From NCBI GenBank assembly GCA_009829735.1, contig CM020620.1, positions 28,304,951 through 28,368,950 of the forward strand: a stretch of 64,000 nt of DNA, written 5' to 3'. This stretch comes from Pyropia yezoensis. Lineage: Eukaryota > Rhodophyta > Bangiophyceae > Bangiales > Bangiaceae. The notes under the pieces are model-generated. The model ran no database searches. It was not told the origin of the DNA and saw only the letters and a program-made list of their open reading frames with translations. The translations under genes and the position numbers were made by a program. Shown piece after piece: positions 17,888 through 53,201 of the stretch. How positions within the stretch are numbered: the first letter of the stretch is position 1; the number at the start of each line of letters is the position of its first letter.

Positions 17888-20005
17888 CTACTCCCGGCGC
17901 GGACGCTGAGCCGCGGGAGTGTCCTCCAGCGCTGCCTCCGCGGCACGACGGGAACCGGAGGAAGACGGGATGACGTAGTGCGGTGGACGCGGTGCATCCC
18001 GGTATGACGCCATCGGAGTAGTACCGGTAGTTGCCGGGGGCACCCGCTCATCCAGATATGCCCGTCGGCGCCCCTGGAAGCCAGTGAAGGTTTCTGACCA
18101 CTGCTGGGCCAAGCCATGCCGCGTCAAGGTCGCCAGTAGTTCGCCAACCACCGGGCTGTTCGACATCTGGCCGCTGTCCGCGCAAGCAAACACCCGGTCG
18201 ACCACGTTGTTCAAGACGCTGGCGTAAGTACCCAGCACCAGGGAGGACCCAACGCCTTCAACCTGCACCGGAAGACGACCCAGCAGGTCTTCAATCATAC
18301 CGACGTCGTACTGGTCGCATGTCGGACCACCTTGGATCAGGTACCAGTCAGGCACTCGGAAGCGGGTAAGGCGCAGAGTCGGCGGCGGAATCTCGAACCG
18401 CCCCGAGGATGACACCACCGGACGGTCCACAACGGCCCCCGAAACCGAAGTACCCAACTCCAGCGGAGGCACAGCGCCGCCGGCGTTGGAAGAAGGCGTC
18501 CGAGGCGGAGCGGCCGGAGTGGTAGGCGACCGCACGGTCACCCCCAGACTCGCCGCAGACAGGCGCGGTGCCGGAGGAGCTTGAAGTACCGGCACAGCCG
18601 GAACAGGGCGTGAACGCGCCGGCGACGGCTCAGGCGAGGCCACCGGGGCGACAGGTGCAACAGGAGGAAGCGGAGCCGCCGCAGACGCCTGACCGACCGC
18701 CGCGGCCCCTCCCGACTCCTGCACCGGCGGCCCAACTGGCAGAAGATCAAGGGCGGCCGGGGCAGGAAAGCTACCTAGCTGCGGCCACGCCGGAAGCGGC
18801 GTCGCCAGCTGCACCTTGGCCGGAGAAGACTGGTAGACCACCTGCGCCCAACCGAAGCCATCCCGACGCGGGCGGTTCTGGTCGGCGATCGCGTTCAAGA
18901 AGATCCGGTCATGCACCGGCACCAGACGCCGGAAGTCAATCATCGCCTGGAAGAGCCCCTTGTACTCTTCGTCCTGGCTGCACAGGAAGTCGACGGTCAA
19001 CTTGTCGACAATCCAGACCATCAGGAGGTCAGGGAGAAACCAAAGCTGGTTGGACACCAAGACCTCGTGAAGCCAGTGGTTGGCCGCCAAGACTGTCATC
19101 TCGGACGTCTACATCATGTACGGGATCGAGTGGAAGAAGCCCTTGATCGACGCCTGAGTCAAGGCGTCCAAGAAGTACCAGGTGAAGGGGATGCTGGAAG
19201 GAGCAAACCCGACCGGGATCTCGACTTCCTGCTGCTGCGGGATGACCTTGGGGTAGTACGCCGCCCGTTTAGCCTTATCCAGCTTCCAGAACTCCTGATG
19301 GTTGCAGCTCACGAGGAATTCACGCTGGCGGCCGCGTCGCTCGCCTTGCTCCCGTGCCGGTGACAACTTGGAGTACTTCCGGGTCAGGAAAGGCGGCTCC
19401 AGAGCGACCATGCTCGGACGGGGGTCGCAGTTCAGGCTCCCCGACCCCTTGAGCGCCTCGTTCCAGACCTTGAGCGCCCGGTGGACGTACCCTTCCTCCT
19501 CCGGCCACCGGAGAACGGACGCGGACACGCGACGCTCGGTCAAGGGCAGATCCAGCAGCAGCGCGAAGGGGAGATCCTCCAGACGAGCAACCCAGGAGGA
19601 ACCCGAGAAGCTCTGGGAGCGGTCTTGTGCCAGGCGCATCTGGTCCGCCGTGTGAAGACGAGCCTTATCCATCTCTGTCAAGACCCCGCGCTGGGATTCC
19701 TTGCGCCAGAGGTCCAAGCAATCCTGCTGGCACTGGGCCGCGCCGGCGTTGCCGACCACCGTGGAGTAACGCCGGGCCGCCAGAGGGTCCTGCCCAAGAA
19801 GCATCTCCGGGAGGCCCACCGGGGGGGTCTCGACCGGGTGCATCACAGAAGCCGGGGGAACCCGATCCGTCCCCGCCGTGGCGACCGGCGCCGACATCGA
19901 CACCCGAGGAACCGGAGGCAGGAGAGGGGCGCGACTACCCGAGTTCTCCTCCGCAACACTCGCCGCCGGAACCACGGGCCCAGCTTGGATCTCGGAACTG
20001 GACAT
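17888..20005 (-). pseudogene. B antisense ORF, split by one in-frame TAG
   Basis: A long ORF opposite to gag-pol, between pol and the 3' LTR. ATG at 20005 (MSSSEIQAG) gives 298 codons, a TAG at 19109-19111, then the same frame continues three codons later for about 405 codons to 17888. The conserved core straddles the stop: before it AAYYPK and EVEIPVGF, after it VLAANHWLHEV and LWFLPDLL (LWFLP at 19031-19045). These match blocks of the C and A antisense ORFs in order. The C-terminal half is Pro/Ala/Ser rich. No known domain is recognised. The TAG may be a mutation, a sequencing error or a genuine end of the first protein. Confidence 0.65.
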
Positions 20006-20189
20006 GACGTCCAGACTCCGGGGGAACGCGAGGGCCAAGGTGAAGGAGAGAAGGGGGGCAGAGAACCGGAGCAGGTGATCGTGACCAGGGTGAAGACGCT
20101 CGACCTCGGCACCGGTGTGGACGTGCTCGAGGCTGTGCACGGTGGCACCTGGTTCGGCCCGAGGACGTGCCGGACTAGGGAGGGAGCTA

Positions 20190-20760
20190 TGTAGCATCCC
20201 TGGCCCCGACTTGGCGCCGACCCGGGACTACAACCAGAGGGCACCAGGTGCCAGAACACGCCCGCCGTGTTGTGATGGTTGGCGGCCGTGGCCCGTGCCC
20301 GGCACTGGGATGCGGTGGACTACGCTATCCACACGTGAGAGAGGGATTGCTGATGAGTTCTTGCATACTTGTGAGGGACTTGATTTGAGAGAATTTGAGT
20401 GTGAGATTAGTGAGTGGGAATAGAATTAGTAGTGATAGTGGCCCCCGACCTGACGAGGTTAGACTCGGGTCGGGGCCACTCGGGGTTATGGGGGGGCTAC
20501 CTGGCCAACGTGCCGAGGCTCCCCCAGATGCACGTTAAGAGGGACAGCGAGGCGCCCTGGGCCCGCGCCCTCAGGAAAAAGACAACTGCGCGTTTGCTTT
20601 CCTCTTCCCCGTGTGCACTACCGTGCGTATCTGTTTGCTCTGCGAGCAGGCACGTGAGGCAACAGGCATACCATTCTCGTAGTTCCCCTTTCTGTGTTAC
20701 CTGTCCCTTTCCCCCGAGGGATATAGACACGTGTCTGAGAGGATCGAGTTTTATGCCACA
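20190..20760 (+). repeat. B 3' LTR
   Basis: 571 bp, preceded by the purine-rich AGGGAGGGAG at 20179-20188 (likely polypurine tract) and followed by the TSD CAACC. Confidence 0.93.
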
Positions 20761-20765
20761 CAACC

Positions 20766-22860: not shown

Positions 22861-23286
22861 TCAGTGGGTAGACCCACTGCCCGAGGGAGGCCACTCACGC
22901 GTAAGCGCGTATACCTCCGTGCTCCACCGGTCGGCAATCTCACGACGGTCAATCACCCGCGTTACCTCGGTGCATAGCTGGACGAGGGTGCTGCGGCCAG
23001 CCTCCACGTCCTCCAGAGCGTTCTGGAGACGGTCAAGCACGCCACCGAAGCAACGCGCTGACCCAACCAGCGCAGCACCTGGGGGGATATCACCCCAGCT
23101 AACAGAGAGACCCTCCCGCATTGCGCGGGCAACAAGGGCGTCAACGCCCTCATACCAGAGACGGGGACCCCCGTCATGCATGACAGGGGCGGGAGGTGAC
23201 CCTGGCGCAGCCAGAGGAGCCACAGGAGCCGACACGGCTACCACCGGAGCCGGTGGCGCCTGATATGAGGCCCGGTAGGACCCCAC
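22861..23286 (-). other. Conserved antisense frame past the A1 antisense ORF (no shared ATG)
   Basis: About 140 codons open in the -1 frame relative to the end of the antisense ORF at 23238 and overlapping it. The protein text is almost the same in A2 (33242-33667) with conservative changes, for example MHDGG/LHDGG and RAMREGL/RAMRGGL. No ATG is shared at its start, so it is more likely a C-terminal extension reached by frameshift or splicing than a separate gene. No domain is recognised. Confidence 0.45.
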
Positions 23287-25229
23287 CAAAGGGGCTCCAC
23301 CGTAACACCGGCGGGGCTCCGCCCGACGACGGGCACCTCACGCTCCCCACCCACAGAGCCCCACTCTCGGGGACGACGGCCAACCGCCGCCGGCATCGGG
23401 TTACCGAACCACGGAGCAAGGACCTGAAGAGGGTCATGGATAACCATGGGAATACCCAGGTCAGCAACAGCCTCGGTGGACGCCCACCCGTGGCAATTGG
23501 GCTCACCCGGCTGAGTACGCCGGATACGCAACGAATGACGAGGCAAGTGGGAAGCCCCAGCCTGCGGGTCCCGGTACGGGGGAAGGGCCAACACCCCAGC
23601 CCAGTTCACGGCATCGTGAACAGCCAGCAGGGCCTCGAACTCCCGGGCCAACCCGGTCTTGGCGGCTATCAGGTCCACGCCCAACTGCGCGATGTGCCGA
23701 CGGACACCCGTCGGAAGATGAAACAGGCGCCCCTGCCGGCGGACGGACAGCAAAAAGGAGGAAGCCTGCCCGAGGGTAACCTCAAGGGTGAAGGTACCCT
23801 GCAACGGGTGGACCGACCGGAAGGCCAACACACTCCCGAAGTATCGGAGGCACGAGCCGGTGTCAAACCGGAAAGCAGGGGCGGGTTCCCACCCCTCCTG
23901 CCACAGAGGCGGGCGCACGGGAGTGTATACCGGCGCACGACCGTTGCCGGTCTGCAACGCACACGTTATATCGGTGCGGAACGCATCCGCCATGACACCA
24001 TGGTTACGTCGCCAGCTTGACGCCGACTTCAACCCCGCCATGGGCGGGTAGGGAGCCGTCAACGACAGAAACGGGGATACCCCCGGGAAGTACTCAAAGC
24101 CGGGATACCGGCCGGTATCGCCCACCGTCTCCCCAAACGCCACCGGCTCCGCCGCCGCCGCAACCCCCCGAGCACTAGCCAGGTATTCAACCTCCCGCGG
24201 CAACGCGGGGGCAATCAGGTCGCATACCCCGAAGGCGGGGACGAGGTAGACCTCACCCCGTCCCACCCGAGTGCGCCAGAGCTGCGCATGCCGGTCGTCC
24301 GGCTGACTCAGGATCCAATGGTGTTCCACCCGGACCGCGTTCGGCTGGTTGACCAGCCGCATCAACTCCCGCTCCCAATTCAGGTCCACCCTGACGCGCC
24401 GTGAGGTGCCTCCAGAGAGTCGCGGCTGGTGGAAGTCCACCCACATCCGCCTATCGGACTCCATTGACTCTTGCACAGTCAGGCCTCGAACTCGAGCCAC
24501 CAAGTCGGACATCGACATGGCGGGTTGACCCGCCGCCACGGCGACGCCGCCACCCAACGGGGCAACCCGGGCAGGACCAGGAAGAATCGGGGGCGCCGGG
24601 GGATGCCCCACCGGCACATGGGCCGTTGACGGAGGTGCACGGGGCCGAGGAGGAAGAAGAAGGGCGGGCGCCCGCCCGGAGTCGCTCCCGGAGTCCACTG
24701 CCATCGGGGTAGATAAGTCTTGACCATCACGCGTCCGCGGCACCGCGGGCAGAGCATCGCCGCCACCCGGGCCCGACGTGGGTACCACGGGGGCAGCACG
24801 GGTAGACCCGCTACCCGCCGCAGCGGACACACCAACCGCGCGGGCACCCGCGCTGTCTTGACCCGCCGTACCGGCCGGGGTGCCGCCACTACCATCCGCC
24901 ACGCCGGCGACACCGTCTCGAGGCAGAGCCGCGCCGGCACCGGCGACAGAAGCCATCCGGGCCACCAGAGGAGTAGCGGTAGAGGCCACCGCTGCACGCG
25001 GTTGTCCGCCACCCGACGGAGCCATCGTGCCGCTACACACGGACGACAACCCGCCCGGCGCGCCTTCCGGGGCCACACGAACGGTCACCCGGTTGTCCTC
25101 GTCCTCCGACGAGCTCGCTAAGAAGCACTCGGCGGCGGTGGCAGAGACGGAAACGTCGTCCACCATCACCTCTTCCTCCTCCTCAAGCAGGAGGTCGTCC
25201 TCGCCCCCGGGTACCTGGGGGTCCGACAT
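23238..25229 (-). CDS. A1 antisense ORF (663 aa), unknown function
   Basis: Opposite strand to gag-pol. The ATG at 25229 (MSDPQVPGGEDD) is chosen because A2 (35688) and A3 (43376) have an ATG at the same place. Residues 1-60 are strongly acidic (EEEEE, SSSEDED), 60-260 are low complexity (Gly, Ala, Pro), and the C-terminal 400 residues look globular and are highly conserved in A2 (MRLVNQPNAVRVEHHWI, PVYTPVRPPLWQEGW, LRYFGSV, LFHLPTGVRRHI). LFHLP maps to 23712-23726. Blocks shared with the C and B antisense ORFs mark a common core. No signal peptide, membrane segment or known domain is seen. Antisense ORFs 3' of pol are known in some plant gypsy elements; this protein itself is not recognised. 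Confidence 0.7.
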   Translation of the reverse strand: MSDPQVPGGEDDLLLEEEEEVMVDDVSVSATAAECFLASSSEDEDNRVTVRVAPEGAPGGLSSVCSGTMAPSGGGQPRAAVASTATPLVARMASVAGAGAALPRDGVAGVADGSGGTPAGTAGQDSAGARAVGVSAAAGSGSTRAAPVVPTSGPGGGDALPAVPRTRDGQDLSTPMAVDSGSDSGRAPALLLPPRPRAPPSTAHVPVGHPPAPPILPGPARVAPLGGGVAVAAGQPAMSMSDLVARVRGLTVQESMESDRRMWVDFHQPRLSGGTSRRVRVDLNWERELMRLVNQPNAVRVEHHWILSQPDDRHAQLWRTRVGRGEVYLVPAFGVCDLIAPALPREVEYLASARGVAAAAEPVAFGETVGDTGRYPGFEYFPGVSPFLSLTAPYPPMAGLKSASSWRRNHGVMADAFRTDITCALQTGNGRAPVYTPVRPPLWQEGWEPAPAFRFDTGSCLRYFGSVLAFRSVHPLQGTFTLEVTLGQASSFLLSVRRQGRLFHLPTGVRRHIAQLGVDLIAAKTGLAREFEALLAVHDAVNWAGVLALPPYRDPQAGASHLPRHSLRIRRTQPGEPNCHGWASTEAVADLGIPMVIHDPLQVLAPWFGNPMPAAVGRRPREWGSVGGEREVPVVGRSPAGVTVEPLWWGPTGPHIRRHRLRW

Positions 25230-25813: not shown

Positions 25814-25818
25814 GGGGG
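25814..25818. repeat. TSD GGGGG of A2 (partner 36635-36639), within the A1 polypurine tract
   Basis: Five G before the A2 5' LTR and five G after its 3' LTR. Joining them with the following ATA rebuilds an A-type polypurine tract (AAGGGGGGGATA) in front of the A1 right LTR, as A2 itself has at 36262-36273. Confidence 0.75.
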
Positions 25819-26179
25819 TGTAGCAATATGGTTGTCCGTATTGTGACCCTAATATCAGGGGGGCTACTTCTAATCCTTAACTTCAATTTGAGAGTCCGAG
25901 CTGGTCACGGTATCTATAAGTTACGTATGACCAGAGGGACTTGCATCTTGGGGTGAAGGGTAGTTAGTAGTGTCTCCGAGGGTTTATAACGAGGGGGCCG
26001 GTGGCGAATCCACCGCCGGCCAAGGAGAACAACAAACCCCTCCCATTTGGGCTCCCATCTTGGTCCCGTGGCTTGCGCTCCAAGGACAGCAACCTTGGCC
26101 TCCCGGTGACAATGGTGCCGATCCCCCTTGGTGAGTGTTCCCTGAGAGTGGACGTGCGACGGATTCCTATTGTGCTACA
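25819..26179 (+). repeat. A2 5' LTR
   Basis: 361 bp, TGTAGCA to TGCTACA, with TATCTATAAG near 25909. The hairpin side GGCCGGTGG differs from A1. Primer site TGGTGGAGCAGCAGGGGA follows at 26181-26198. Confidence 0.92.
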
Positions 26180-26404
26180 TTGGTGGAGCAGCAGGGGACG
26201 GGTTTCCGTCACCCTTGTGGTGACGCCGTCTTCGGCCCTGGCACACGGATAGGGATCCGGTCCTTTTCTTGTACTCGTGGTGTTGCGACCTGATCGATTG
26301 TGTTGAGCTTTTACCTGTGACTGTGACATACTGTTACTCTCCCCAATCTACCCCCTCGCTCTCTTATTCGTGGTGATCGTTGCTTCGGTGGACTGATTGT
26401 GACT

Positions 26405-28588
26405 ATGTCTACCCAAGAGACGGGGAACGTTCAAGATGACGGATCGGCGTCGACGCCGACCCCGGAGGTGACTACGGGAACCGGGATCGGGAACCCGATC
26501 GATAACATTGAGACGCCAATGCTCTCCGGTGCCGGATCGACGTTTGGCACGGCTCGGACGGCAGGAGGCGGGGGCCCGCCTCAACTGTCGTCGACCGACC
26601 TCACTCCGCCGCCTCCTTCACCAGGGGATTCCCTGATGGCATCATTGGCCCGCATCGAGGCCCGGTTTTCCGGGCTCGACGCCCGTCAAGATCGGACGGA
26701 GGACGCAATGGCAGTGTTGATGTCAACACGGCACACGACGGGACCCCGTCGTGTTCCTCCCACACCGGTACGGTTCGAACCGGCCGGACTACTTTCGGAG
26801 TCCACCAGGGTCAATCCCGGGGTTGCTACTCCTGGACAACCCCCGGACACAATGGGGTATGGGTCCGACTCGTCGGCAGAGTTGGAACGGAGTCACACGG
26901 AGCGATACGCTCGGAGCACCCGAAGCGGACTCCGCGGACACGACCCGGCGGATACGTACGCCGGGGGAGAGTCGGTTATTGGGGGAGGGGGTACCCTCTC
27001 GCAGTACCCCCACGACGAAGGAGGCCAGGCAACTCGGGTTCCCGAGGTGCCGACGCCTGAAGTACCATCTTCAGTGGTGGAAGCTATGACCGCGCAGGTA
27101 ACTGCGAGCCTACTGAAGCGGATGGAATCCGATGAGTTCGCTCATCAACTGGCTAAGCGACTGGATATCCAGGACGCTGACACGGAGATCGTCAACGAGG
27201 TCTTCCGGTCGGTTCTTACTCCGGAACGTTATCGTTTGGAGGACCGCTCTACCACCGTATCGGAATCGATGCGTAATACGTCGCATCGGGCGATCCGCTC
27301 TATGCAGACCCTTATGAAGGGAGTCCCTATGTTCGGGGGGCCGAACGGACGCCCGTTGGCAGTCATCGGCTTCTTGACTAGCTTCAAGGCAGCCGCAGAC
27401 AAGGCGCTCGTTAACGAGGGGCTGGCCCTGGAGATCCTCCCGTTCTTTGTTGATGAACGGGTGCGAGGCATTCTTCGCCAGGCATCCCCGATGCCGGGAA
27501 TGAGGGTCGCGGCCACCCCCATGGATTACCGTGGGATATTGAAGGAGCTGCTGAGCAGCTACCTCAGTGAGGACAAGTGCGAGGACCACTATCGGGCCCT
27601 TCGCACTGCCACCGCCCAGTCCTGGGAGGATGAGGAGATGTTTGGACGCCGGATCCCAGAGCTCGACTACGAGCTGGGGAAGCTCCTCGGAGAAGGGGAG
27701 CTACGGGCCATCCTGTTCTCAGGAGTACCCAACTACGTGCGGATATCCGCACGGGGCGCCAACACGGCACGGACGAACTTCAGTCGACTGATGCATATGT
27801 GCAAGTCCCTAGGGGACGCCTACCGGGTTCTACACCCGGAGTGTGCCTTGGCCCCGAAGCCCAAGGGTGAGGGAGGCAAGCCCAGTCTTACCCCGGTACC
27901 GAGGCAAGAGAAGGTGGAACGTAAGGCCGCACCAGTACTGGTGGCAACCGAACATACCCCTATTGGTGAGGATGAGCCTCTAGTCGACCAACAGGGCCAC
28001 CTGTTGCTACCGGCGACGCCGGTGATTGATGAACATGGTACGGTAGCGTACATCGCCCCGGCTGGAACCCAGTTCCAGGTCAACGAAGGAACGGGACGGC
28101 GCGTCCCTTATGTGCGGACTACGGGGTACTCCCCGGTGACGGGTAACCCTCACCAACCCTTGCCAACATGGGCGGTGCGCACGGAGGCACCCCCGCAGAT
28201 TGCGGGCCGACCAAACCGGTTGGGGGAGTCCATGTTCCGGTTGACCCAAGGACCCAGTGCCTACCAGGGAGCAGGCACTCGGGCGCCCGAGGGAGGCAAC
28301 CGTAGCTACGGGGCTACCCCGATGCGATCTCAAGGGGGGACCGGCACGTCCGGGTGTATGTTGTGTGGGGATCCCCAGCACTGGGTGTCTTCCTGCCCAC
28401 TCAACCCCGAGGAGTCTCGGCGGGCAGCGGCGCAACGCAAGGCATCCACCGGGGGGTATCCCGCCCGAGCACCCGGACCCGCACCGGGTAGGCAGCCAGC
28501 TCCAGGTGGAGTACTGGCCGTCGAGGAGGCACCCCCTTATCCGGATATTTCGGAGGACAGCACCCGGACGAGCACGGGAAATGAGTAA
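26405..28588 (+). CDS. gag: A2 gag polyprotein (727 aa)
   Basis: Intact Gag, same length as A1. The ATG at 26405 (MSTQETGNVQ) is the first after a leader of about 200 bases. Low-complexity N-terminus, conserved helical gag region (around TPERYRLEDRSTTVSESM and ALEILPFFVDERVRGIL) and a CCHC knuckle from residue 651 (CMLCGDPQHWVSSC). Basic, Pro-rich C-terminus. It ends with GGGAAAT at 28576-28582 overlapping GAG TAA. Pol starts five bases later. Differences from A1 are mostly scattered substitutions in the low-complexity part, with no stop or frameshift. Confidence 0.92.
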   Translation: MSTQETGNVQDDGSASTPTPEVTTGTGIGNPIDNIETPMLSGAGSTFGTARTAGGGGPPQLSSTDLTPPPPSPGDSLMASLARIEARFSGLDARQDRTEDAMAVLMSTRHTTGPRRVPPTPVRFEPAGLLSESTRVNPGVATPGQPPDTMGYGSDSSAELERSHTERYARSTRSGLRGHDPADTYAGGESVIGGGGTLSQYPHDEGGQATRVPEVPTPEVPSSVVEAMTAQVTASLLKRMESDEFAHQLAKRLDIQDADTEIVNEVFRSVLTPERYRLEDRSTTVSESMRNTSHRAIRSMQTLMKGVPMFGGPNGRPLAVIGFLTSFKAAADKALVNEGLALEILPFFVDERVRGILRQASPMPGMRVAATPMDYRGILKELLSSYLSEDKCEDHYRALRTATAQSWEDEEMFGRRIPELDYELGKLLGEGELRAILFSGVPNYVRISARGANTARTNFSRLMHMCKSLGDAYRVLHPECALAPKPKGEGGKPSLTPVPRQEKVERKAAPVLVATEHTPIGEDEPLVDQQGHLLLPATPVIDEHGTVAYIAPAGTQFQVNEGTGRRVPYVRTTGYSPVTGNPHQPLPTWAVRTEAPPQIAGRPNRLGESMFRLTQGPSAYQGAGTRAPEGGNRSYGATPMRSQGGTGTSGCMLCGDPQHWVSSCPLNPEESRRAAAQRKASTGGYPARAPGPAPGRQPAPGGVLAVEEAPPYPDISEDSTRTSTGNE
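28576..28582 (+). promoter_or_regulatory. GGGAAAT heptamer at gag end (A2)
   Basis: Same as A1: gag phase G-GGA-AAT, with TGA next in the -1 frame. The reverse copy A3 has GGGAAAC here (55061-55067 on the plus strand as GTTTCCC), with the -1 frame open into pol. Confidence 0.5.
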
Positions 28589-28593
28589 GAGGA

Positions 28594-33241: not shown

Positions 33242-33667
33242 TCAGTGGGTAGACCCACTGCCCGAGGGAGGCCACTCACGCGTAAGCGCGTATACCTCCG
33301 TGCTCCACCGGTCGGCAATCTCACGACGGTCAATCACCCGCGTTACCTCGGTGCATAGCTGGACGAGGGTGCTGCGGCCAGCCTCCACGTCCTCCAGAGC
33401 GTTCTGGAGACGGTCAAGCACGCCACCGAAGCAACGCGCTGACCCAACCAGCGCAGCACCTGGGGGGATATCCCCCCAGCTAACAGAGAGCCCCCCACGC
33501 ATTGCGCGGGTAACAAGGGCGTCAACGCCCTCATACCAGAGACGGGGACCCCCGTCATGTAGGACAGGGGCGGGAGGTGACACTGGCGCAGCCAGAGGAG
33601 CCACAGGAGCCGACACGGCTACCACCGGAGCCGGTGGCACCTGATACGAGGCCCGGTAGGACCCTAC
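33242..33667 (-). other. Conserved antisense frame past the A2 antisense ORF
   Basis: Counterpart of 22861-23286, ending in the same residues (WPPSGSGSTH). The preceding antisense ORF stops with TAG at 33664-33666 where A1 has TGG, so the overlap differs while this frame is kept. Confidence 0.45.
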
Positions 33668-36273: not shown

Positions 36274-36634
36274 TGTAGCAATATGGTTGTCCGTATTGTG
36301 ACCCTAATATCAGGGGGGCTACTTCTAATCCTTAACTTCAATTTGAGAGTCCGAGCTGGTCACGGTATCTATAAGTTACGTATGACCAGAGGGACTTGCA
36401 TCTTGGGGTGAAGGGTAGTTAGCAGTGTCTCCGAGGGTTTATAACGAGGGGGCCGGTGGCGAATCCACCGCCGGCCAAGGAGAACAACAAACCCCTCCCA
36501 TTTGGGCTCCCATCTTGGTCCCGTGGCTTGCGCTCCAAGGACAGCAACCTTGGCCTCCCGGTGACGTTGGTGCCGATCCCCCTTGGTGAGTGTTCCCTGA
36601 GAGTGGACGTGCGACGGATTCCTCTTGTGCTACA
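36274..36634 (+). repeat. A2 3' LTR
   Basis: 361 bp, TGTAGCA to TGCTACA, followed by the TSD GGGGG and three bases (ATA) of A1 before the next LTR. Confidence 0.92.
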
Positions 36635-36642: not shown

Positions 36643-37005
36643 TGTAGCAATATGGATGACCGTATTGTGACCCTTTAATAGGGGGACTACTTCTAACCCT
36701 TAACTTTCAATATGAGAGTCCGTATTGATGACGGTATCTATAAGTTACGTATGACCAGAGGGACTTGCAACTTGGGGTGGAGGGTAGATAGTAACGTCTC
36801 CGAGGGTTTATAACGTGGGGGCCGGCGGCGAATCCACCGCCGGCCAAGGAAGAACAACAAAATTCCTCCCATTTGGGCTTCCATCTTGGTCCCGTGGCTT
36901 GCGCTCCAAGGACAGCAACCTTGGCCTCCCGGTGACGTTGGTGCCGATCCCTCTTGGTGAGTGTTCCCTGAGAGTGGACGTGCGACAGATTCCTATTGTG
37001 CTACA
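36643..37005 (+). repeat. A1 3' (outer right) LTR
   Basis: 363 bp, TGTAGCA to TGCTACA. Its left third (GGATGACCGTATTGTGACCC, GTATTGATGACGG) matches the A3 LTRs and not the A1 5' LTR, while its right two thirds resemble all A LTRs. It is followed by CTTCC, the near-copy of the A1 left TSD. Confidence 0.85.
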
Positions 37006-37414: not shown

Positions 37415-37419
37415 TGAGG

Positions 37420-42427: not shown

Positions 42428-42789
42428 TGTAGCACAATAGGGATCCGGTGCACGCCCACTCTCAGGGAACACTCACCAAGGGGGATCGGCACCAACGTTA
42501 CCGGGAGGCCAAGGTTGCTGTTCTTAAAGCGCAAGCCACGGGACCAAGATGGGAGCCCAAATGGGAGGGGTTTGTTGTTCTACCATGGCCCGCGGTGGAT
42601 TCGCCGCCGGCCCCCCCGTTATAAACCCTCGGAGACACTACTAACTACCCTCAACCCCAAGTTGCAAGTCCCTCTGGTCATACGTAACTTATAGATACCG
42701 TCATCAATACGGACTCTCATATTGAAAGTTAAGGGTTAGAAGTAGTCCCCCTATTAAAGGGTCACAATACGGTCATCCATATTGCTACA
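42428..42789 (-). repeat. A3 3' LTR (reverse)
   Basis: 362 bp, TGTAGCACAATAGG to CATATTGCTACA on the plus strand. Same length as the LTR at 57458. Confidence 0.92.
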
Positions 42790-43375: not shown

Positions 43376-44853
43376 ATGTCGGACCCCCAGGTGCCCGGGG
43401 GCACGTACGACCTCCTGCTCGAGGAAAGGAGGTGATGCAGGACGACGTCCCCGTCGCTGCCACCGCTGCCGAGTGCTTCCTCGCCAGCTCTTCTGAGGAC
43501 GACGAGGATCGGGTGACCGTCCGCGTGTCGGCAGCGGGCCCGCCGGGCGGACTGTTGTCCGTCTGCAGCGACACGACGGCGCCGTCGGGGGGCGGTCAAC
43601 CGCGTGTGGCGGTTCCTGTTCCTACTCCTCCGGCGGCCCGGATGGCTCCTGTCGCCGGTGCCGGCGCGGCGCTACCTCGAGAACGTGCAGCCGCTGCTCC
43701 TGATGGTCGTGGCGGCGCCCCGGCCGGGACGGCGGGTCAACTTGGTGCGAATACCCGCCCGGTTGGTGGTCCGTCTACGGGGACCATTCAAGGGTCTTCC
43801 CCATCCGTCCCCGTTGCGCCCTCGTCGGGCCGGGGTGGTGACGACGAACGTCCCGCGGTGTCGCGGGCGACTGTCGATCAAGACGTGTCTTCCCCGATGG
43901 CGGTGGACTCCGGGAGTTATTCCGGGCGGGCGCCCGCCGTTCTTCTTCCTCCCCGCCCGCGTGCGCCTGCGGCGCCGGCCCATTTGCCGGTGGGGCTCTT
44001 CCCGGCGCCGCCGATTCTTCCTGGGCTCGCCCGGGTTGCCCCGCTGGGTGGCGGCGTCGCCTTGGTGGTGGGACACCCCCCTGTGTCGGTGTCCGACTTG
44101 GTGGCTCGGGTTCGAGGCCTCACCGTGCATGAGCCCATGGACTCCGCTGGCCGGATGCGAGTGGACTTCGACTCGCCGGGCAACCGTGGAGGTTCCTCCC
44201 GTCGTATCAAGTTGGACCCGAGTTGGGAGCGGGAGTTGGCGCGGCTGGTGAACCAGCCGAATGCGGTCCGTGTGGAGCATCATTGGATACTGAGTCAGCC
44301 GGACGACCGGGATGCCCAGCTCTGGCGCATCCGGGTCGGGCGGGGTGACGTATTCCTCAACGCCGCGTTCGGGGTATGCGCATTTCGTTGCTCCCGCGAT
44401 GCCGCGGGACATTGACTACCCGGCTAATGCTCGAGGGGTTGCGGCCACTGTGACATCTGTTGCCTTTGGGCACACCGTGCCCGATACCGGCCGGTATCCC
44501 GGGTTTGAGTACTTCCCGGGGGTATCCCCGTATCTGACGTTGACGGCGCCCTTCCCGCCCATGGCGGGGCAGAAGTCGGCGTCGAGCTGGCGACCCAACC
44601 ATGGTGTCATGGCGGATGCGTTCTGCACCGATATAACGTGTGCGTTGCAGACCGGTAACGGTCGCGCGCCGGTGTACACGCCAGTGCGCCCGCCTCTATG
44701 GCAGGAGGGGTGAAAACCCGCACCAGCTTTCCGGTTTGACACCGGCTCGTGCCTCCGATACTTCGGGAGTGTGTTGGCCTCTCGGCCTGTCCACCCGTTG
44801 CAGGGGACCTTCACTCTCGAGGGTACCCTCGAGCAGGCTTTCTCCTTCCTGTT
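43376..44853 (+). pseudogene. A3 antisense ORF, truncated and frameshifted
   Basis: Same protein as the A1 and A2 antisense ORFs, here on the plus strand because A3 is inverted. ATG at 43376 (MSDPQVPGG) agrees with the chosen start. A small deletion near 43427 shifts the frame within the acidic stretch; an open frame resumes at 43432 and runs to 44415, then another frameshift, and TGA replaces TGG at about 44711. C2 cuts it at 44853, 40 to 50 codons before the LFHLP block. Confidence 0.75.
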
Positions 44854-45322
44854 TGTGGCAGTATTGACCCCCAGGTAGGGGGGCAACACGTGCCATGCAA
44901 GGGGCGGCAGGCCACTAGCATGATCCGATCCTCCCCCTGCTTTTGGGTCCATATTCCCTAAGTTTGGAATAGTTAGCTTAGTAGTAAATCCAACACGGAT
45001 TTGAGGGTTTTCTGCATTTATCGTCTTGAATTTTCGTGTGGCCCGGTGGGCAGGTGCTGGGGTGGGAGATTCTGAGTGGCGAGATTCTGAGAGGACCCTG
45101 GGGGGATAAGGGGAGGGACAGCGGGGCTTAGCCCTGCGTCCCCGTCCCGACCAAGAAACTGTTGGACCACACACCATCCTCTTGCTTGTCCGTGGGGGGT
45201 TTGCCCCACAACAGGGACAGAGTGTGTGCGACTTGCACTTCTTCCGGTTCCCCCGACACGGGAGGCAGCCCTTGCACACCGCCCCAACTTGGGTGCCGTG
45301 TGTGCATGTGGTTTTTGCCACA
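44854..45322 (+). repeat. C2 5' LTR
   Basis: 469 bp, TGTGGCAGTATTG to TTTTTGCCACA (7-bp inverted ends). Primer site TGGTGGAGCAGCAAGGGA at 45325-45342. Confidence 0.92.
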
Positions 45323-45441
45323 TTTGGTGGAGCAGCAAGGGACAAAGGTAAACTTTACCTTCGGGTGCACCCGGGTGTAGGGGGCCCTCTGTCTCAGAGG
45401 AACGGTGGACTTGGACCGTGTAATACGGATCGTTAGCCAAC

Positions 45442-47388
45442 ATGGCTAGCTCGGACCCCCCGTCGTCCGGGGAGTACACGGGTGACGCACGTACTTCAGT
45501 GCCTTTGAATACTGGTGAGACACAGGTAGGTGTACCTGGGGTCGCAGAGGGACTGGAGGTCCCTCAAGCCAGCAGGACTGGAAGTACGGGCGGGCAACAG
45601 GTCACCCCGACTCAGTCGGGAGTTCATTCGGGTGACACTTCTGATGTGGGTGGGCCGAAGTCTGGCCACCGTGTGGTATACTCAACGGGAACGTCCCAAG
45701 GGGTGAGGACTGTCCCCGCGGGTTCCACTCGGGTTGGAGCCAACTTTGGCTTGGAGCCGTCGCCAAATAGGCTTTCGGAGGGCGGCGGACCTCCGTTGGT
45801 CGGCGATGGGCTCGCGCCCATGCCCCCGGTTGAGACCCCTGAGGAATGTGGTTACCCCTCAGGTGGACTCCCGGAGGCGGACCGAGACTCAACTGGAGTC
45901 GTCAATCCACTCCTCGCGGAAACTGTCCGTCGGGAGGCGACCAATGTGATGCGGCAGACTTTGCCGGACCTGGTGGTCACGATGATGAATACTATTCTGA
46001 ATCAAATTGTGGCGAGCTTGCCAGATGGCCTTAATGTCCAGACCGGACTGGGGCTTTCGACCCCGCAGGCGCAGAGGGAATCTCCCTTGACGCCTATTCC
46101 GGGTCGCCCCGAACACGGGGGGACCCTTGCGACTCCCAACGGGGGAGCCACACCATTCTCGGTGGGGCGTCCTCCCTTCACGGGGGAGTTCCCCTCGGAA
46201 ACGCCGGCGGCTACACCAAGCTCGCCGTACCAGACTACAGGCGCTGAGGGTCAACTTACCCCAGTGCCACAGCAGCTGTTCCCTCAACGTGAGGTGCCGC
46301 CCAAGATCCAGGTAGCCAACCCGGTCTACCAGAGGATCTTTGACTGTGAGACCTACGCCCTCCACAACAAGTCGGTGGCGTACGGTCCTGACCAGGCCCG
46401 AGCCATGGGCCGTGCCAAGAAGAATGCACTTCATTCTCTTAGGCACAAAGCGGAGTGGGATGGAACTCCCCCCCTCCGTGTCTTTGAGTTTCTACGTCGC
46501 TTCACAAAAGCCTGTGACGACAGTGCCGTAAGTGAAGGCATGGCTTTTTACATGCTAAATGAGTTTACGAAGGGCGACCTACGGACAGAACTTATGTCCG
46601 TCATGCCCAGCTCCTCAAGTGGAGGCGCTGGGGAGGTGACGTTCCATTTGGAGCTCGTCAACTGGTTGTTGAGGGCCATGGTTGATGAAGCGGCGTTGGA
46701 TTCTCAAGTCGAGGAGTTTACGCAAGCCCATCAGGAATAGACTGAGGACGAGTTGTCCTTTGCGGAGCGCGTCCGTAAGCTCAACAATCTTTGTGGGTTT
46801 CTTCATCCACAAGCTGTGGTGAAGAGTCGGTTTGTGGAGGGACTCCACTGGTCAGTCCGGATGGAGACCCGGGAGCATAACACTGCCCGGGCGACCCTGG
46901 CCGAGTTGGCTAGATTCGCCTACCGCAGAGGTGAGGCCTACCGCAAGTTGCGGGAGGAACAACGCCAGGAGCGTCAGGCCGAGTTGGCCAAAGAACGTGC
47001 GGAGGCGCGCCAGGCCAGAGAGTCGCGAAAGGCACGCCGAGTCCGCAAGGAGAGGGTGGTAGCTGCCGTGGAAACTTCCCAGGGTATCTCTTCGTCTTCC
47101 GCAGTCGGGAAGACCCCTCCCGGAACTGACAATCGGTGTTGGAACTGCAACTCCGATGGACACTGGGCATGTGATTGGCCTATGTTGAGTAAACGCATCC
47201 AACAACTTGTTAGGAATGCGAGTAAGAAGTCGGCTACGAACGAAGTACATTCCCGCCGCGAGGGTGGGTCTTGACAGGTCGTCGCGGTCGCCACACCCTC
47301 GGCGGAGGAGGCGGACACGTCGTCCTCGGACTCGTCGTCTTCCTCCCCGCCCTCAGATTCGGACGCCAAGTCGGCGGGAAACGAATGA
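45442..47388 (+). pseudogene. gag: C2 gag with two nonsense codons
   Basis: One frame of about 649 codons from ATG 45442 (MASSDPPSSGEYTGDAR) to TGA 47386-47388, broken only by TAG at 46738 (GAG in C1) and TGA at 47272 (near a Trp codon in C1). It contains a Pro/Gly/Thr-rich N-terminus, a gag domain around 46300-46900 and a charged coiled-coil-like basic stretch (AELAKERAEARQARESRKARR). In the knuckle CWNCNSDGHWACDW the fourth ligand Cys has become Trp, with a new Cys two residues earlier. It ends GGA-AAC-GAA-TGA with pol ATG overlapping the stop (ATGA, 47385-47388). Confidence 0.88.
47376..47382 (+). promoter_or_regulatory. GGGAAAC slippery heptamer, gag-pol junction of C2
   Basis: G-GGA-AAC in gag phase, one sense codon before the stop; the -1 frame is open before and after and leads into protease. 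Reinitiation at the overlapping ATGA is the alternative. Confidence 0.65.
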
Positions 47389-50300
47389 CCGTTGGAGCTG
47401 GTCGTCCTAAGCTCACAACGGCAGCCTCGGCCAAGTGGGCCAAGAGGACGAACCAACCGTGCCGGATTCTGCGGCGACCTAAGGGAGTCCGCCCACCTCG
47501 TGTAGGACTCCCCAAGAACGTAAACCCACGTCGGGTCATCGCGGTGCTGACGGGTGAGAACTTCCAGGTGGCTGGACGGGTGCAACTTGCCCCCGGCCGC
47601 GCCTGTTGCGCCCGTATCGTACTTGATACCGGGTCGGGAGCCTCCTTGATACGCAAGTCGCTATTACCAAAGGAGGTGAAGCTCCAACGCTGGAGGTCCA
47701 AAGCTGACCATGTGATCGATATCAATGGTGGGGTACTTCCCAACGTTGGTGCCGTGACCCTACCAACTAGGTTGGGGACCCATGAGGTCGACGTGACCAA
47801 TGGTGTAGTTGAGAACATATCGGTACCCCTGCTTCTGGGTACCCCTTATGTTGTTACACAAGTGCCTTTGATTTGTGGCCCGGAGTACTGGGTCAAGTTG
47901 ATGAATGGGGAAACTATCCCCATCCTTGGTAAGGGAAAGTCTGTGGCTCCTGTGACAGTCTCACACTCGAAGCCTGTTTGTTCTGTGAGATAAGGGTTTA
48001 CTGCTACACTGCGTTTAGCCCGTAAAGTCACGTGGCCCCCCAACTCGGTGGCGCACGTTGACGTTGTAACTGATTATACGGGGAACGGGTTGGTGCACCC
48101 TTACCCCCGTCTTGCTCGCAAGCACCAAGTGCATGTTGCCCGTGGCACGATGGACTCCAAAGCCGGAGTCCCGTGGAGGATACAGGTGATGATCCTGAGC
48201 TCGTCGCCCTCAACGCCGGCGCAAGTAGCGACCCGAAGTCCGGAACAGAGAAGCATCAAGCCAAGTCGGCCGCCTCTCCTCGGCCCCATGTGAACATGAA
48301 GGGTGTCCCCCCCAGGTTGAGGGTTCAAGTTGAACGCCTCTTGGACCAATATCACAAGTTGTGGTATGGTCAATTGGGACTCATGAGAGCCACCCAACAC
48401 CAGATCGAGTTGAAGCCCGGTGCACCCCCTATACGCACACAACCGTATAGGGGAGGGCCCCGTTCAAGGGCCCTCGTCAAGGAGCAAGTTGCTCGCATGG
48501 AGGCCCTCGATGTGATCGAGGCCAGCAACGCCGAGTGGGCGAGTCCGGTGGTTATCGTCCCCAAAGTTGATGGGACCCCCCGGTTCTGTATCGACTACCG
48601 TAAGCTCAACGAGAGCACGGTGAAGGACAGTTATCCCCTACCTAGGATGGACGACTGTCTGGACTCTCTGGGGGAGGCGAACGTGTTCTCTACCCTGGAC
48701 TGTAACGCGGGGTACTGGCAAATTCCCATTGCCCCGGAGGACAGGCATAAAACTACCTTTACCTGTCACTGTGGTACCTACCAGTGCAAGCGTCTACCGT
48801 TTGGTCTGTGTAACGCGCAGGCAACTTTCCAGCGCGCTATGGGCATGATTCTGGGCGGAGTACGGTGGCAGATCTGTCTTGTGTTGTCCGTCCGGGGCGT
48901 CTCAGTGTCAACGAGAAAAGTTGAGGGCCATCCGCAAGGCTCAGTACCCCCGGACCCAGACCCAGATGAGGAGCTTCCTCGGGATGTGTAACGTGTACCG
49001 ACGTTTCACCAAGGGCTTCGCCAAGGTGGCGAAGCCGTTGAATGAGCTAGTGAGCTCAACGCTACCGAAGAACCTGCCTCCCCCAAGTCGGGTGGAGCAG
49101 GAATCCTTCGAGACTCTTCGGGACCTTCTGCTGACGCCCCCCATCTTGGCTATTCCCAGGATGGGAGGCCACTACATCCTGGATGTGGACGCTAGCTACG
49201 ACCAACTTGGTTGTGTGTTGCTTCACCAGCAGCCGGACAAGGAGTACTTGCCGGTGGGATACTTCAGTATGGGGCTGAACTCGGCCGAGAAGAACTACGG
49301 AGTCACCGAGTTGGAAGGACTCGCAGTGGTGTGGGCGGTGACGTCACTTCGTCACTACCTGGAGCGTGAGAAGTTCCTCATCCGCTGTGACCACCGCGCG
49401 TTGCAGTTCATCTTCAAGACGGACTGTACGAACACTCGCCTCAACCGGTGGAGGGTGCGACTGGCACCCTTCAACTTTGATATTGACTACCGACCTGGCA
49501 GGCAACAAGCCCTTGCCGACGGCCTCTCTCGGGTACCTACCGAGGGGCTGGACACTAACCCAGTCGATGAGGACATCCCCATCGTGGGGGTAGTCACGCG
49601 CTCGGGTCAGGCGTTGAACCCCGAGGCGCCAGGGAACAAGAAGTACTTGCCCCTGTCCCTGGACGAGGTGGTGAAGGCCCAGGCCGAGGATCCCTTCTGC
49701 AAGTCGCAGAGGGATACACTGGATACGGTGGCGGAGACGCGGTTCTTCATCGGAGACGATGGCCTTCTCTTGAGGAGGGCGGTGATTCAGGGGACTGAAC
49801 AACTTGTCGTCCCCGCATCCCTCAAGGACAGTAGTCTTGAGAGGGAGCACAACGCTCTCTCGGGAGGACACCTGGGGTCTAGTAAACTGTACCAGACCCT
49901 GAGGACCAGGTGCTACTGGCCATCCATGGTGGTGGACATCTACAGTTGGGTGGCTGCCTGCACAAGTTGTGCGCAGAATCGTCTGATTGAACGGCGGCCT
50001 AGTACGGCTATGCTATTGTTCTCGGCGAAGGAGCCCTTCGCCGCGTTGGCGATGGACATCCTTGGGCCACTGCCAGTGACCGAGGAGTGCAACCAGTGCC
50101 TCCTGGTCATCTGTGACCGCTTCACGAAACTTACGCGAGCGATCCCACTGGCAGAGATCACGGCCATGTCGGTCGTGTCAGCCTTCCTAGATCACTGGGT
50201 TGCCGCGTATGGCATCCCAGATAGTACACTATCGGACAATGGACCGCAACTTGCGTCTGTACTGTATCAGGGAGTGCTGGATATGTTGGGGGTGCGGGCA

Positions 50301-51146
50301 AACTATGCCACCCCCTACCACCCACAAACCAATGGGCAGGTGGAGCGCTTCAACAAAACTATTGTTAGGCAGCTGCGCCACTATGTGAGTGAGCACGCGA
50401 AAACGTGGGACCGATACATTTCTATCCTTACTACTGCCTACAATTCGCAGGTTCACTCATCTACCGGGGAAGTACCCCTCGCTTTTGTGACCCCCCGTCG
50501 TGTGCGGTCTATTGCCGTGCGGCGGTCACTCCCAACTAGGGAGGATAGTGGCAGGACGCCTACTCCTACTGAGAGTAAGGCGGAGTTCGCTGCTAGGCTG
50601 GAACACCTCATCCCTAAAGTCAGCGCTGAGATGGACAAAGCACAAAAGCGCTACAAGGGTACCTTTGACAAGCAGGTGCGCAATGCCAAGCATGTCCCCG
50701 AACAGGGTGACTGGGTGCTGGTTCACTCACACACCCCAACTGGGGGTAAGTTGGTATTCCAGACGAAGGGGCCGTACCAGGTCCTTCGTACTGATGGGCG
50801 GCGCTTCACCATCGAAAGTGACGATGGGGTCCGCACAGTGAACGGACAGGACGTGGTCAAAGTTGCACCACCGCCTGCAGGCGACCCAGCTTGGGCGCGT
50901 TCTTTGGAAGCGTGGCGCCTCCCCTCACTGCCTGCGGCCAAACAGGGCCCGCAGGAGTACGTGTTCGATAAGTTCATCGACCACGGCTGGGATGAGGACA
51001 CTGACCGCCTCATATTGAGGGTGCGTTGGTTTGGCTACAAAGCCAAGGATGATACGTGGGAGTATGTGGAGGACCTTCCCGCTGAGAAGGTCCGGGCGTA
51101 CTGTGCCCGGAATGAGATAGACCCTAACAGCCCTCCCTCAACGTGA
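47385..51146 (+). pseudogene. pol: C2 pol, RT active site deleted
   Basis: Protease with intact LDTGSGASLI near 47622. TAA at 47991 (GAA in C1), then a deletion and frameshift near 48205. RT is open from 48173 (RFCIDYRKLN, CNAGYWQIPI) but just after WQICLV about 151 bases are missing relative to C1, removing YLDD and shifting the frame at about 48883. The next frame is open from there to 51146: RNase H (DVDASYDQLGC), integrase with HHCC region and DDE (AMDILGPLPV, LSDNGPQLAS, QTNGQVERFNK) and a C-terminal chromodomain (YVFDKFIDHGW, LILRVRWFGY, TWEYVEDLP). The deletion ends share CTTGT, suggesting slippage or end joining. The following 111 bases to the antisense ORF show nothing. Confidence 0.88.
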
Positions 51147-51257
51147 GGGAAGGCCGAGCAACAGTGCCAAGAGAGTGCTTCAAGTCGAAGTGGTACGCAG
51201 AGTGGCTTTTAACTACAGCCCTAACCCTCACACTCTCACAACAAAGGCAGCTGCCAA

Positions 51258-53201
51258 CTAGGCACGCATGCTAGACTCCCCCACTCCACGGCCCTCGCCC
51301 TCACGTGGAGGCGAGCGGCGAGACCCACGCCGATAACGGTCTCCACTCGTTGGAAGGGGCGGCGGCTCCAAGCCGGAACCGTCGCGCCCTTCACGGTCGC
51401 GCAAGTGGCGCCGACCGTGGCTACTCTTCTGCCTGGTGTTGCGCGCAAGCTTGCGACGCAGACGCTGGACAGACTCCGTCTCCGACGGGGTAGAGGACTC
51501 CGAGACGGAGTAAGACAACTCGTCTTCCGACACGGAGGGAGAGCGCCGCGAGCGTCGGCGACGACGGCGAGGAGGCGAGTATGCCCGGCTCGCACGACGT
51601 TTGCCACGCCCAAGTGGGGCTGGATGGGGCATAATAGCCCCAATGCGAGCCAACTCGGCTGTCATAAACTCCGCCACCGACTCGCAACTCGCGGTCGCCA
51701 CTGCAGTACGAACGCGCTCCTCACGTTGAGGAGTCTCGGAAGTTTGAAGGGTTGTGGTCGACGCGGCCAACCAGGAAAAGGTGCGCGCCAACGTGGTGAT
51801 CATCATCTCTGAGGTTAGAGGCGTGGGCAATAACACCAACTTGGGGTATACCGTCAGGAGGGTGGCCCCCAAGTTGGGGGACACCGGGGTGGATGACTCC
51901 ACGGCCACGCTGATCGGGATGTCCCCGTGAGGCTGGTAGGGGACAGGAGGAAGCGGAGGGGCACGCCGAGGTGGCGGTACCCGGGTGTAACTGCGACCCC
52001 GACTTGGGGCTCCCGCAGTGGGTTGAGTCATATGGTCATCATGTGAGGGCACGGCCATAACTATGGGCTTGTCCGGGGGTGGCGCAGTGTGGCGATCCAC
52101 CCCCGGGGCATACGGGTAGTCCCCGATGCCCAACCCCTCTCGTAGGACCACACGGCCGTCGTGAAGTTCACGAGCGACCCACACGAACTGGCGAAGTGCG
52201 CCATCGTCCTTGGGCCCACGAGTGGGGCGGCGCAACTTGTGCTCAATGCTCTCCCACTCGATGAACTTGTGGAGGCGGAGCATCTCCTCCAGCAGAGTGA
52301 GTTGTCCTGATGAGCACCCCTCACCAACTAGCTGAGGGGTGAGCTGTTCCAAACCTTGGATGAGCCGGAGGGGGAGATGCCAGAGCATCCTCCGCCGCTG
52401 AACACAAGACACCCAGGTCGACATGACCTCGAGGAGCCACTGGGTGGCCAACATGGCCCACACCAGGTGATCAGGGCCAGCCGTCAACATGACGGAGCCG
52501 AAGTGGTCAAGCAACCGTGGCAGCAACGCCAGGAACCCGTAGGGGACCTCAACTTGAGGCCACCACTCGGGCTTCTTCGGATAGTACTGCTCCTTCCTGG
52601 CAGCAGACTGTTGAGGAAACTCAAGTTGAGCCGAGATCACCAAGTAGGGACCTCGCCGGAAGTCCTTCTCCATCCGCACATCAAAGTGATGAGTGTGCGG
52701 ATCGGCATCGTGCAGGTACGGGGGGCGAGTTGCCACAGCGTCCCACGTGAAGGTCGGCAAGTCGCCGGGACCCGGGATAGTTCCCCCGCGGTCCACCATG
52801 GCCTTGGCACGCTGGACGTCTTCAACCTCCTCGTCGTCCAGGAAGGCAAACTGGTCCGTCCTGAAGCCGGCAGGGAACCCGACCCTACGGGGATACTTCT
52901 CCCGTAGGCGGTCCCATACCCGACCCATCGCTGCGCCAAGTCGGCCACAGCGAAGGACAGTCAACCCCTCCTCATAGAGAGGCCAAGCGGGGTAAAACCA
53001 CCGCCCCAAGGCCTCACGCGGGACAACTTGTCCCGCCTCCGGGGGACATCCCGCCGTCAACCCAAAGCCGGGTGACGCGGGAGTCCCATCCCCCGGAGCG
53101 ATCGCGGAGCCCCCGCCGGAAGTCCCGGCGGGCGCTGCACCGTAGGGGGTGTCCTCCATACGTTCGTCGAGAGAGTCCGTCTCCACCCCCGGGGTCACCA
53201 T
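51258..53201 (-). CDS. C2 antisense ORF (647 aa), unknown function
   Basis: Opposite to gag-pol, ATG at 53201 (MVTPGVETDSLDERMEDTP); C1 has an ATG at the same place (MVYSGVEFDSLDERMEDTP), which decides the start. The frame is also open upstream, with some conserved text (GRPPVYPRS), so a longer form is possible. A globular middle region carries QYYPKKPEWWPQVEVPYGF, LLDHFGSVM, LLEVMSTWVSCVQRR and MLWHLPLRLIQGLEQL (LWHLP at 52371-52385), in the same order as in the A and B antisense ORFs. The C-terminus is Arg/Ser-rich (RRRRRRSRRSPS), possibly nuclear or nucleic-acid binding. It is open throughout while gag and pol of the same element are broken. Confidence 0.75.
   Translation of the reverse strand: MVTPGVETDSLDERMEDTPYGAAPAGTSGGGSAIAPGDGTPASPGFGLTAGCPPEAGQVVPREALGRWFYPAWPLYEEGLTVLRCGRLGAAMGRVWDRLREKYPRRVGFPAGFRTDQFAFLDDEEVEDVQRAKAMVDRGGTIPGPGDLPTFTWDAVATRPPYLHDADPHTHHFDVRMEKDFRRGPYLVISAQLEFPQQSAARKEQYYPKKPEWWPQVEVPYGFLALLPRLLDHFGSVMLTAGPDHLVWAMLATQWLLEVMSTWVSCVQRRRMLWHLPLRLIQGLEQLTPQLVGEGCSSGQLTLLEEMLRLHKFIEWESIEHKLRRPTRGPKDDGALRQFVWVARELHDGRVVLREGLGIGDYPYAPGVDRHTAPPPDKPIVMAVPSHDDHMTQPTAGAPSRGRSYTRVPPPRRAPPLPPVPYQPHGDIPISVAVESSTPVSPNLGATLLTVYPKLVLLPTPLTSEMMITTLARTFSWLAASTTTLQTSETPQREERVRTAVATASCESVAEFMTAELARIGAIMPHPAPLGRGKRRASRAYSPPRRRRRRSRRSPSVSEDELSYSVSESSTPSETESVQRLRRKLARNTRQKSSHGRRHLRDREGRDGSGLEPPPLPTSGDRYRRGSRRSPPREGEGRGVGESSMRA

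What the first reader, a model, noticed from the sequence alone, without database searches (positions are those of the whole stretch)
17888..53201. One antisense-encoded protein family shared by three gypsy families
Elements of families A (23238-25229, 33664-35688), B (17888-20005) and C (51258-53201, 57931-59463) all carry a 650-700 codon ORF opposite to gag-pol between pol and the 3' LTR. The families differ in LTRs, gag and most of pol, yet the antisense proteins share ordered blocks: Y-x-P then P-x-x-F (YTPVRPPLWQEGWEPAPAF in A, YYPKKPEWWPQVEVPYGF in C, YYPKVIPQQQEVEIPVGF in B); FGSV in A and C; then LFHLPTGV (A), LWHLPLRL (C), LWFLPDLL (B), followed 9-11 residues later by [QK]-L-[TG]. Antisense ORFs are known in some plant gypsy elements, but a protein conserved across families here would be a module that moves or is inherited with the element and may act as an antisense regulator, capsid inhibitor or targeting factor.
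Basis: partly seen in the sequence, partly recalled or inferred. Interest (0 to 1): 0.9.

Follow-up and report, generated by a model that had tools for sequence, protein, structure and literature searches.

The report
Antisense accessory gene in seaweed retrotransposons
Three related families of jumping genes in a nori-type red seaweed carry an extra gene on the opposite strand, between pol and the 3' repeat, whose protein is preserved by selection while the elements spread, so it probably helps them do so, although its exact job is unknown.

Summary
Three related Gypsy families (A, B, C) carry a long reverse-strand gene between pol and the 3' LTR. C's protein matches A's (BLASTP 2e-6) and B's (4e-5); profiles put A-C and C-B above all 60 shuffles, A-B only via C. 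The host is a Pyropia-type red alga, probably P. yezoensis (inferred). The frame is free of stops in 55 of 63 (C), 144 of 150 (B piece) and 118 of 119 (A core) scored copies, a best-match sample. Variants shared between copies have pN/pS 0.07-0.18 against 0.38-0.93 for private ones; C pol gives 0.11 and 0.41. So the protein is selected while elements propagate. Corrections: gag and pol are related too, so inheritance with the element suffices; the B copy has one stop; A1 and A2 change frame near the C-terminus. No useful Pfam, NCBIfam, PHROGs or PDB-sequence match. Plant Retand and Grande elements share the layout, but Retand's TRP28 domain was not found. Best reading: a lineage-specific accessory protein that helps propagation, perhaps in the nucleus; expression and function untested.

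The parts
51258..53201 (-). Family C antisense gene, copy C1 (647 codons from the ATG at 53201; frame open upstream to 53372)
   Evidence: 55 of 63 scored genomic copies lack stops; an ATG at this start is seen in the plus-strand copies listed
57931..59463 (-). Family C antisense gene, copy C2 (3' end not matched); dN/dS to C1 0.24
33664..35688 (-). Family A antisense gene, copy A2 (Pro-rich N-terminal part and core)
33245..33730 (-). A2: C-terminal part continued in another frame (continuous in relatives P0003 and P0004)
23238..25229 (-). Family A antisense gene, copy A1
22864..23349 (-). A1: C-terminal part in another frame, as in A2
43432..44854 (+). Remnant of a third A antisense gene (element on the minus strand), in two frames, ending at the C element
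17888..20005 (-). Family B antisense gene, interrupted by one stop at 19109-19111; genomic copies without this stop exist (705 aa)
33820..34833 (-). A2 conserved core compared across families
52119..53021 (-). C1 conserved core compared across families
18830..19756 (-). B conserved core (two pieces either side of the stop)
17888..18340 (-). B C-terminal part; marginal match to the A C-terminal part, none to C
26399..32763 (+). Family A element A2: gag (26399-28588) and pol (28594-32763)
7367..17742 (+). Family B gag and pol, with a duplicated 4.45-kb stretch around a 500-N gap
45442..51146 (+). Family C gag and pol (several frames)
25819..26179 (+). Family A LTR (between A1 and A2); 98.9% identical to 36274-36634
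36274..36634 (+). Family A 3' LTR of A2
6174..6744 (+). Family B 5' LTR, 99.3% identical to 20190-20760
20190..20760 (+). Family B 3' LTR
44854..45322 (+). Family C 5' LTR, 96.4% identical to 53540-54008
53540..54008 (+). Family C 3' LTR

Best explanation
A family of element-encoded accessory proteins of Gypsy retrotransposons in bangiophyte red algae. The gene is inherited with the elements and lies tail-to-tail with gag-pol. It is probably read from an antisense RNA that starts in or just inside the 3' LTR (inferred). Its protein (about 650-700 aa in C and B: Pro-rich variable N-terminus, a conserved core of roughly 200-340 aa, Pro-rich linker, variable C-terminal part) is a positive factor in the element's own cycle, acting preferentially for the copy that encodes it (inferred from selection). 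Most likely it works in the nucleus, on element transcription, RNA handling, entry of the integration complex or escape from silencing, by analogy with maize Grande GENE23. Shown: protein homology, open copies, selection. Inferred: expression, place of action, molecular job. I put about 0.9 on a selected helper protein and about 0.4 on the nuclear part.
For: Homology across families. Relatives in Pyropia vietnamensis, 59% identical in the best case. Scored copies free of stops: C 55 of 63, B piece 144 of 150, A core 118 of 119. dN/dS between window copies, not chosen by similarity: C1/C2 0.24; A core pairs 0.43, 0.35 and 0.29; the other two frames on that strand 0.91 or more for these pairs. 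Variants shared by two or more copies: C pN/pS 0.07 (30 copies), B 0.13 (20 copies); C pol in the same loci 0.11 (26 of 29). In parts of the gene not used to pick the copies: B 0.18 (19 of 20) and C-like 0.17 (18 of 20), while private variants give 0.85 and 0.63. That contrast means selection acts during propagation and is much weaker after insertion. No Gag match in nine comparisons; no stretch of membrane-spanning hydrophobicity in four proteins. Family C has an Arg-rich, NLS-like stretch near its end.
Against: No transcript or protein evidence was available. No structure could be predicted (tool busy, then switched off). No informative known domain. Only C has an obvious basic stretch; A and B show none, which weakens the nuclear reading. 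A-B homology is indirect, and the C-terminal part is not shared with C. In family A the gene is held less strictly than gag and pol (core 0.29-0.43, whole frame 0.67, against 0.15-0.18). Private B variants do not distinguish the antisense frame from the other two (0.85 against 0.68 and 0.86). Scored genomic copies are the best matches, so stop-free rates are inflated.
Confidence: 0.6

Rival explanations
1. The protein is a structural or assembly partner of Gag (a second particle protein or chaperone) made from the antisense strand and needed in the cytoplasm.
For: Conserved in propagating copies; Pro-rich with a conserved core; no basic nuclear signal in A or B.
Against: No match of any antisense profile to the three Gag proteins (nine comparisons, best E 0.14). 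A particle protein made from a separate antisense RNA would be unusual (own judgement).
Confidence: 0.15
2. The protein is a copy-number control factor that inhibits its own element (capsid inhibitor or repressor), as HBZ represses HTLV-1, or p22 limits Ty1 (p22 recalled, from no call).
For: Position and orientation like hbz, whose product lowers HTLV-1 expression (PMC10186651, passages).
Against: Shared variants in C and B are purged about as strongly as in C pol (0.07-0.18 against 0.11). Copies that lose an inhibitor should gain, so strict keeping argues for a helper.
Confidence: 0.12
3. The RNA, not the protein, matters: convergent antisense transcription makes double-stranded RNA or blocks sense reading.
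For: Convergent arrangement close to pol (gaps of about 110-145 bp between the two stops in C and B); a dsRNA role is discussed for plant antisense ORFs (PMC7264820).
Against: An RNA role does not explain change concentrated at third positions of one frame pair, with stop changes avoided in the antisense frame only.
Confidence: 0.05
4. A host gene was captured once and is carried as cargo without use to the element.
For: No relation found to known retroelement proteins.
Against: Cargo would drift; shared variants show purifying selection. The hits form high-copy sets; I did not check the flanks of each, and no single-copy host homologue was seen.
Confidence: 0.04
5. Env-like protein for leaving the cell.
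For: [quoted passage not shown]
Against: Opposite strand; in four proteins no stretch reaches membrane-spanning hydrophobicity (maximum 19-residue mean 1.23-1.54).
Confidence: 0.02

Closest known systems
Retand-lineage plant Gypsy elements with antisense TRP28 (PF04195) ORFs (PMC11963269, 2025; abstract and passages seen)
   Same: Antisense ORF between pol and 3' LTR, present in nearly all recently active clusters (97% with TRP28), unknown function, regulatory role proposed
   Different: Retand are non-chromovirus elements of flowering plants; the TRP28 model finds nothing in the A and C proteins scanned or in this genome; red algal host; here selection is measured copy by copy
Maize Grande gene23 (review PMC7264820, 2020; parts 1 and 2 of 3 read)
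   Same: Antisense gene between pol and 3' LTR, retained in copies; in Grande it has its own promoter and makes a nuclear protein
HTLV-1 hbz and HIV-1 asp (review PMC10186651; passages seen)
   Same: Antisense gene near the 3' LTR
   Different: HBZ is a bZIP protein and represses the virus; no Pfam match here, and the selection pattern suggests a helper
Boty of Botrytis cinerea (named in PMC7264820)
   Same: Non-plant element with an antisense ORF between pol and 3' LTR
   Different: Not compared by sequence here

Membership tests
Antisense additional ORF class (aORF-3R) of LTR retrotransposons | Long ORF antisense to gag-pol between pol and 3' LTR | tested here: met
Antisense additional ORF class (aORF-3R) of LTR retrotransposons | Kept in most copies, with conservation like other element genes | tested here: met
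   stop-free in 55 of 63, 144 of 150, 118 of 119 scored best matches, not all copies; conservation like pol in C, weaker than gag and pol in A
Retand with TRP28 | TRP28 domain (PF04195) in the antisense protein | tested here: not met
   no PF04195 match at E up to 10 in 8 C-type and 23 A-type proteins; B pieces scanned at E up to 1 only: none; 0 matches in the whole genome at E up to 10. HMMER's filters drop most very weak matches.
Retand with TRP28 | RT of the non-chromovirus Retand lineage | not tested
   no RT tree was built; B and C pol end in weak chromodomain matches
Chromoviruses (carrier elements) | Chromodomain at the C-terminus of integrase | tested here: inconclusive
   PF00385 E 0.0011 (B) and 0.0044 (C), 19.2 and 17.3 bits, below Pfam's cut-off of 25.1; not listed for A at E up to 0.1
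Grande GENE23-like | Own promoter and nuclear protein | not testable with these tools
   no RNA or localisation data
HBZ-like antisense regulator | bZIP domain | tested here: not met
   no Pfam family in 6 proteins at E up to 1
Env-like ORF | Sense strand and transmembrane segments | tested here: not met
   antisense; maximum KD19 1.54 or less in 4 proteins

The most novel reading that the evidence does not exclude
This red algal protein and the antisense proteins of plant Retand and Grande elements descend from one ancient antisense gene, too diverged for sequence search, so that Ty3 elements have carried a reverse-strand helper gene since before red algae and plants split.
Probability: 0.08. 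Interest if true: 0.85.

Novelty: new variant of a known kind. Interest (0 to 1): 0.6.

Why it matters
In the papers seen here, antisense genes of LTR retrotransposons are described mainly in flowering plants, plus a fungal example, and their role is open. Here is a separate protein family in red algae, in several high-copy element families, with a copy-by-copy signature (shared variants purged, private ones much freer) showing that the protein matters while elements propagate. That makes a system in which the role of antisense element genes could be tested. It also warns that such genes are deposited as host 'hypothetical proteins' (P. vietnamensis MMPV entries).

Tried and rejected
Gag duplication as origin: nine antisense-versus-Gag profile comparisons, best E 0.14. 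TRP28 homology: none. Known domains: Pfam, NCBIfam, PHROGs and PDB sequences gave nothing of use (in one search three unrelated Pfam families each touch one of 23 proteins, best E 0.014). Viral contigs: no relative of the A or C protein (B not tried). Shared C-terminal part in all three families: A-B only marginal (E 0.012, score 19.8 against at most 19.3 in 60 shuffles; 6 A and 11 B sequences), A-C and B-C no better than shuffles with 4 C sequences or with 28 of 39. Promoter scan of the C leader and LTR: nothing, and it looks for bacterial promoters. Other Gypsy families in the genome: some pol copies repeat in tandem every 6.4-6.8 kb, which looks too short for such a gene; 1.5 kb beside one (L071) shows no relative recognisable by eye; inconclusive. 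Literature: nine searches ran; no report of antisense ORFs in red algal elements was seen in these listings, in a library that lacks most subscription journals.
Full report
What is there. The window holds three related Gypsy families. Family A has 361-bp LTRs (25819-26179 and 36274-36634, 98.9% identical), B 571-bp LTRs (6174-6744 and 20190-20760, 99.3%), C 469-bp LTRs (44854-45322 and 53540-54008, 96.4%). Gag and pol are on the + strand in the main elements; Pfam recognises reverse transcriptase, RNase H and integrase in A and B, and RNase H and integrase in the one C pol frame scanned. Between pol and the 3' LTR each has a long frame on the opposite strand.

Host. The window lies in a 107.5-Mb genome of 11 contigs, three of them 29-44 Mb. 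The A protein is 59% identical to a hypothetical protein of Pyropia vietnamensis over 90% of the region searched (further P. vietnamensis relatives). Residues 2-195 of a EukProt protein (P0012) are identical to a stretch of this genome. The P. yezoensis genome paper (PMC7423979, passages only) gives 48% repeats, mostly LTR retrotransposons. I infer P. yezoensis or a very close relative; no call names the genome.

One protein family. BLASTP links A and C (2e-6) and B and C (4e-5) but not A and B. Multiple alignments show ordered blocks through the core. With enlarged profiles (23 A-type rows, 20 C-type rows, 16 of 20 B copies) A-C (45.9) and C-B (43.2) exceed all 60 shuffles and A-B (20.8) does not, 5 of 60 reaching it; an earlier run with 40 shuffles agreed, A-B being reached by 8. 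The family statement is therefore firm for A-C and B-C and indirect for A-B.

It is a gene. In window pairs, which were not picked by similarity, dN/dS in the antisense frame is 0.24 (C1/C2, 511 codons; 0.21 in the core) and 0.43, 0.35 and 0.29 for core parts of A pairs, against 0.91-2.1 in the two other frames on that strand. The whole A frame gives 0.67 (others 0.99 and 0.92) and one N-terminal A pair 0.58 (others 0.88 and 1.66), so the N-terminal part is loosely held. Gag and pol of A1/A2 give 0.15-0.18, stricter than the A antisense core. In genomic copies, variants shared by at least two copies have pN/pS 0.07 (C, 30 of 63 scored copies, one being the window's own) and 0.13 (B, 20 of 150, one being the window's own); private variants 0.38 and 0.68. 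Pol in the same C loci (26 of 29, 3 dropped as short) gives 0.11 and 0.41. Read on the sense strand, one frame of the C region also shows low values (0.14 shared, 0.41 private) because its third positions coincide with those of the antisense frame, but it holds 8 shared and 16 private stop changes against 0 and 2 in the antisense frame; this sense-strand control was run for C only. Since copies were picked by protein similarity, I repeated the test on parts not used in the choice: B 0.18 shared against 0.85 private (19 of 20 copies), B C-terminal part 0.12 against 0.93, C-like 0.17 against 0.63 (18 of 20). Shared variants in the other two frames there give 1.56-2.57, 2.04-3.2 and 1.72-2.6; private B variants do not separate the frames (0.68 and 0.86 in the others). 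Selection thus acts while elements propagate and is much weaker afterwards.

Copies. Scored copies without stops: C 55 of 63, of 14,245 candidates; B 144 of 150, of 1,657, within a 215-residue piece, and by my count 128 of these 150 frames run to 700 codons or more; A 118 of 119, of 2,468, within the 338-residue core. These are the best matches and so overstate how many copies are intact. The commonest A open frame is 909 codons (45 of 119 by my count), longer than the 777 of the window's A2, consistent with the frame change seen in A1 and A2.

What it is not. No informative Pfam, NCBIfam, PHROGs or PDB-sequence match, no match to Gag, no membrane-spanning stretch in four proteins, no TRP28 in the A and C proteins scanned or in the genome.

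Inherited or moved? Pol is 41-45% identical between families, gag is related by profile (A-B 1.4e-13, B-C 1.5e-14, A-C 4.8e-5), and the stretches just inside the 5' LTRs and the LTR ends are nearly the same. The antisense protein, about 23% identical between A and C, changes faster than pol of a common element, so inheritance with the element is enough. Three families cannot exclude exchange.

How it probably works. A self-inhibitor should be lost by successful lineages; instead the gene is kept about as strictly as pol in family C. That argues for a helper, acting mainly for its own copy. Published parallels are Grande GENE23, a nuclear protein with its own promoter (PMC7264820), and Retand TRP28 proteins, for which a DNA-binding regulatory role is proposed (PMC11963269). 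I therefore favour a nuclear helper (about 40%) over a Gag partner (15%) or inhibitor (12%); the rest is a helper of another kind or none of these. Expression, place and biochemical job are not shown.

Novelty. The layout is known; the protein family, the red algal setting and the shared-versus-private selection evidence appear new within the searches made.

Noticed in passing
7994-12439 and 12940-17379: Two 99.6% identical 4.45-kb stretches of the B element flank a run of 500 N (12440-12939), probably an assembly duplication at a gap, not biology.
   Followed up: partly
851-37005: A1 and A2 share one LTR (25819-26179), giving LTR-gag-pol-antisense-LTR-gag-pol-antisense-LTR, and a further A LTR copy follows at 36643-37005.
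   Followed up: partly
6169-6173 and 20761-20765: Element B sits in the pol of A1 with a 5-bp target duplication, CAACC.
   Followed up: yes
44854-54008: The C element, though with 96% identical LTRs, shows no target duplication and lies in a minus-strand A element whose middle is missing.
   Followed up: partly
26180-26199, 6745-6764, 45323-45342: All three families have almost the same sequence just inside the 5' LTR, suggesting one tRNA primer; the tRNA was not identified.
   Followed up: no
G000: Other Gypsy-type pol frames of about 1186 or 1255 codons occur, some in tandem with periods of about 6.4-6.8 kb, apparently without room for an antisense gene.
   Followed up: partly
51258-51610: The family C protein has an Arg/Ser-rich stretch near its end, resembling splicing-factor tails or a nuclear signal; none was found in the A and B proteins examined.
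   Followed up: no
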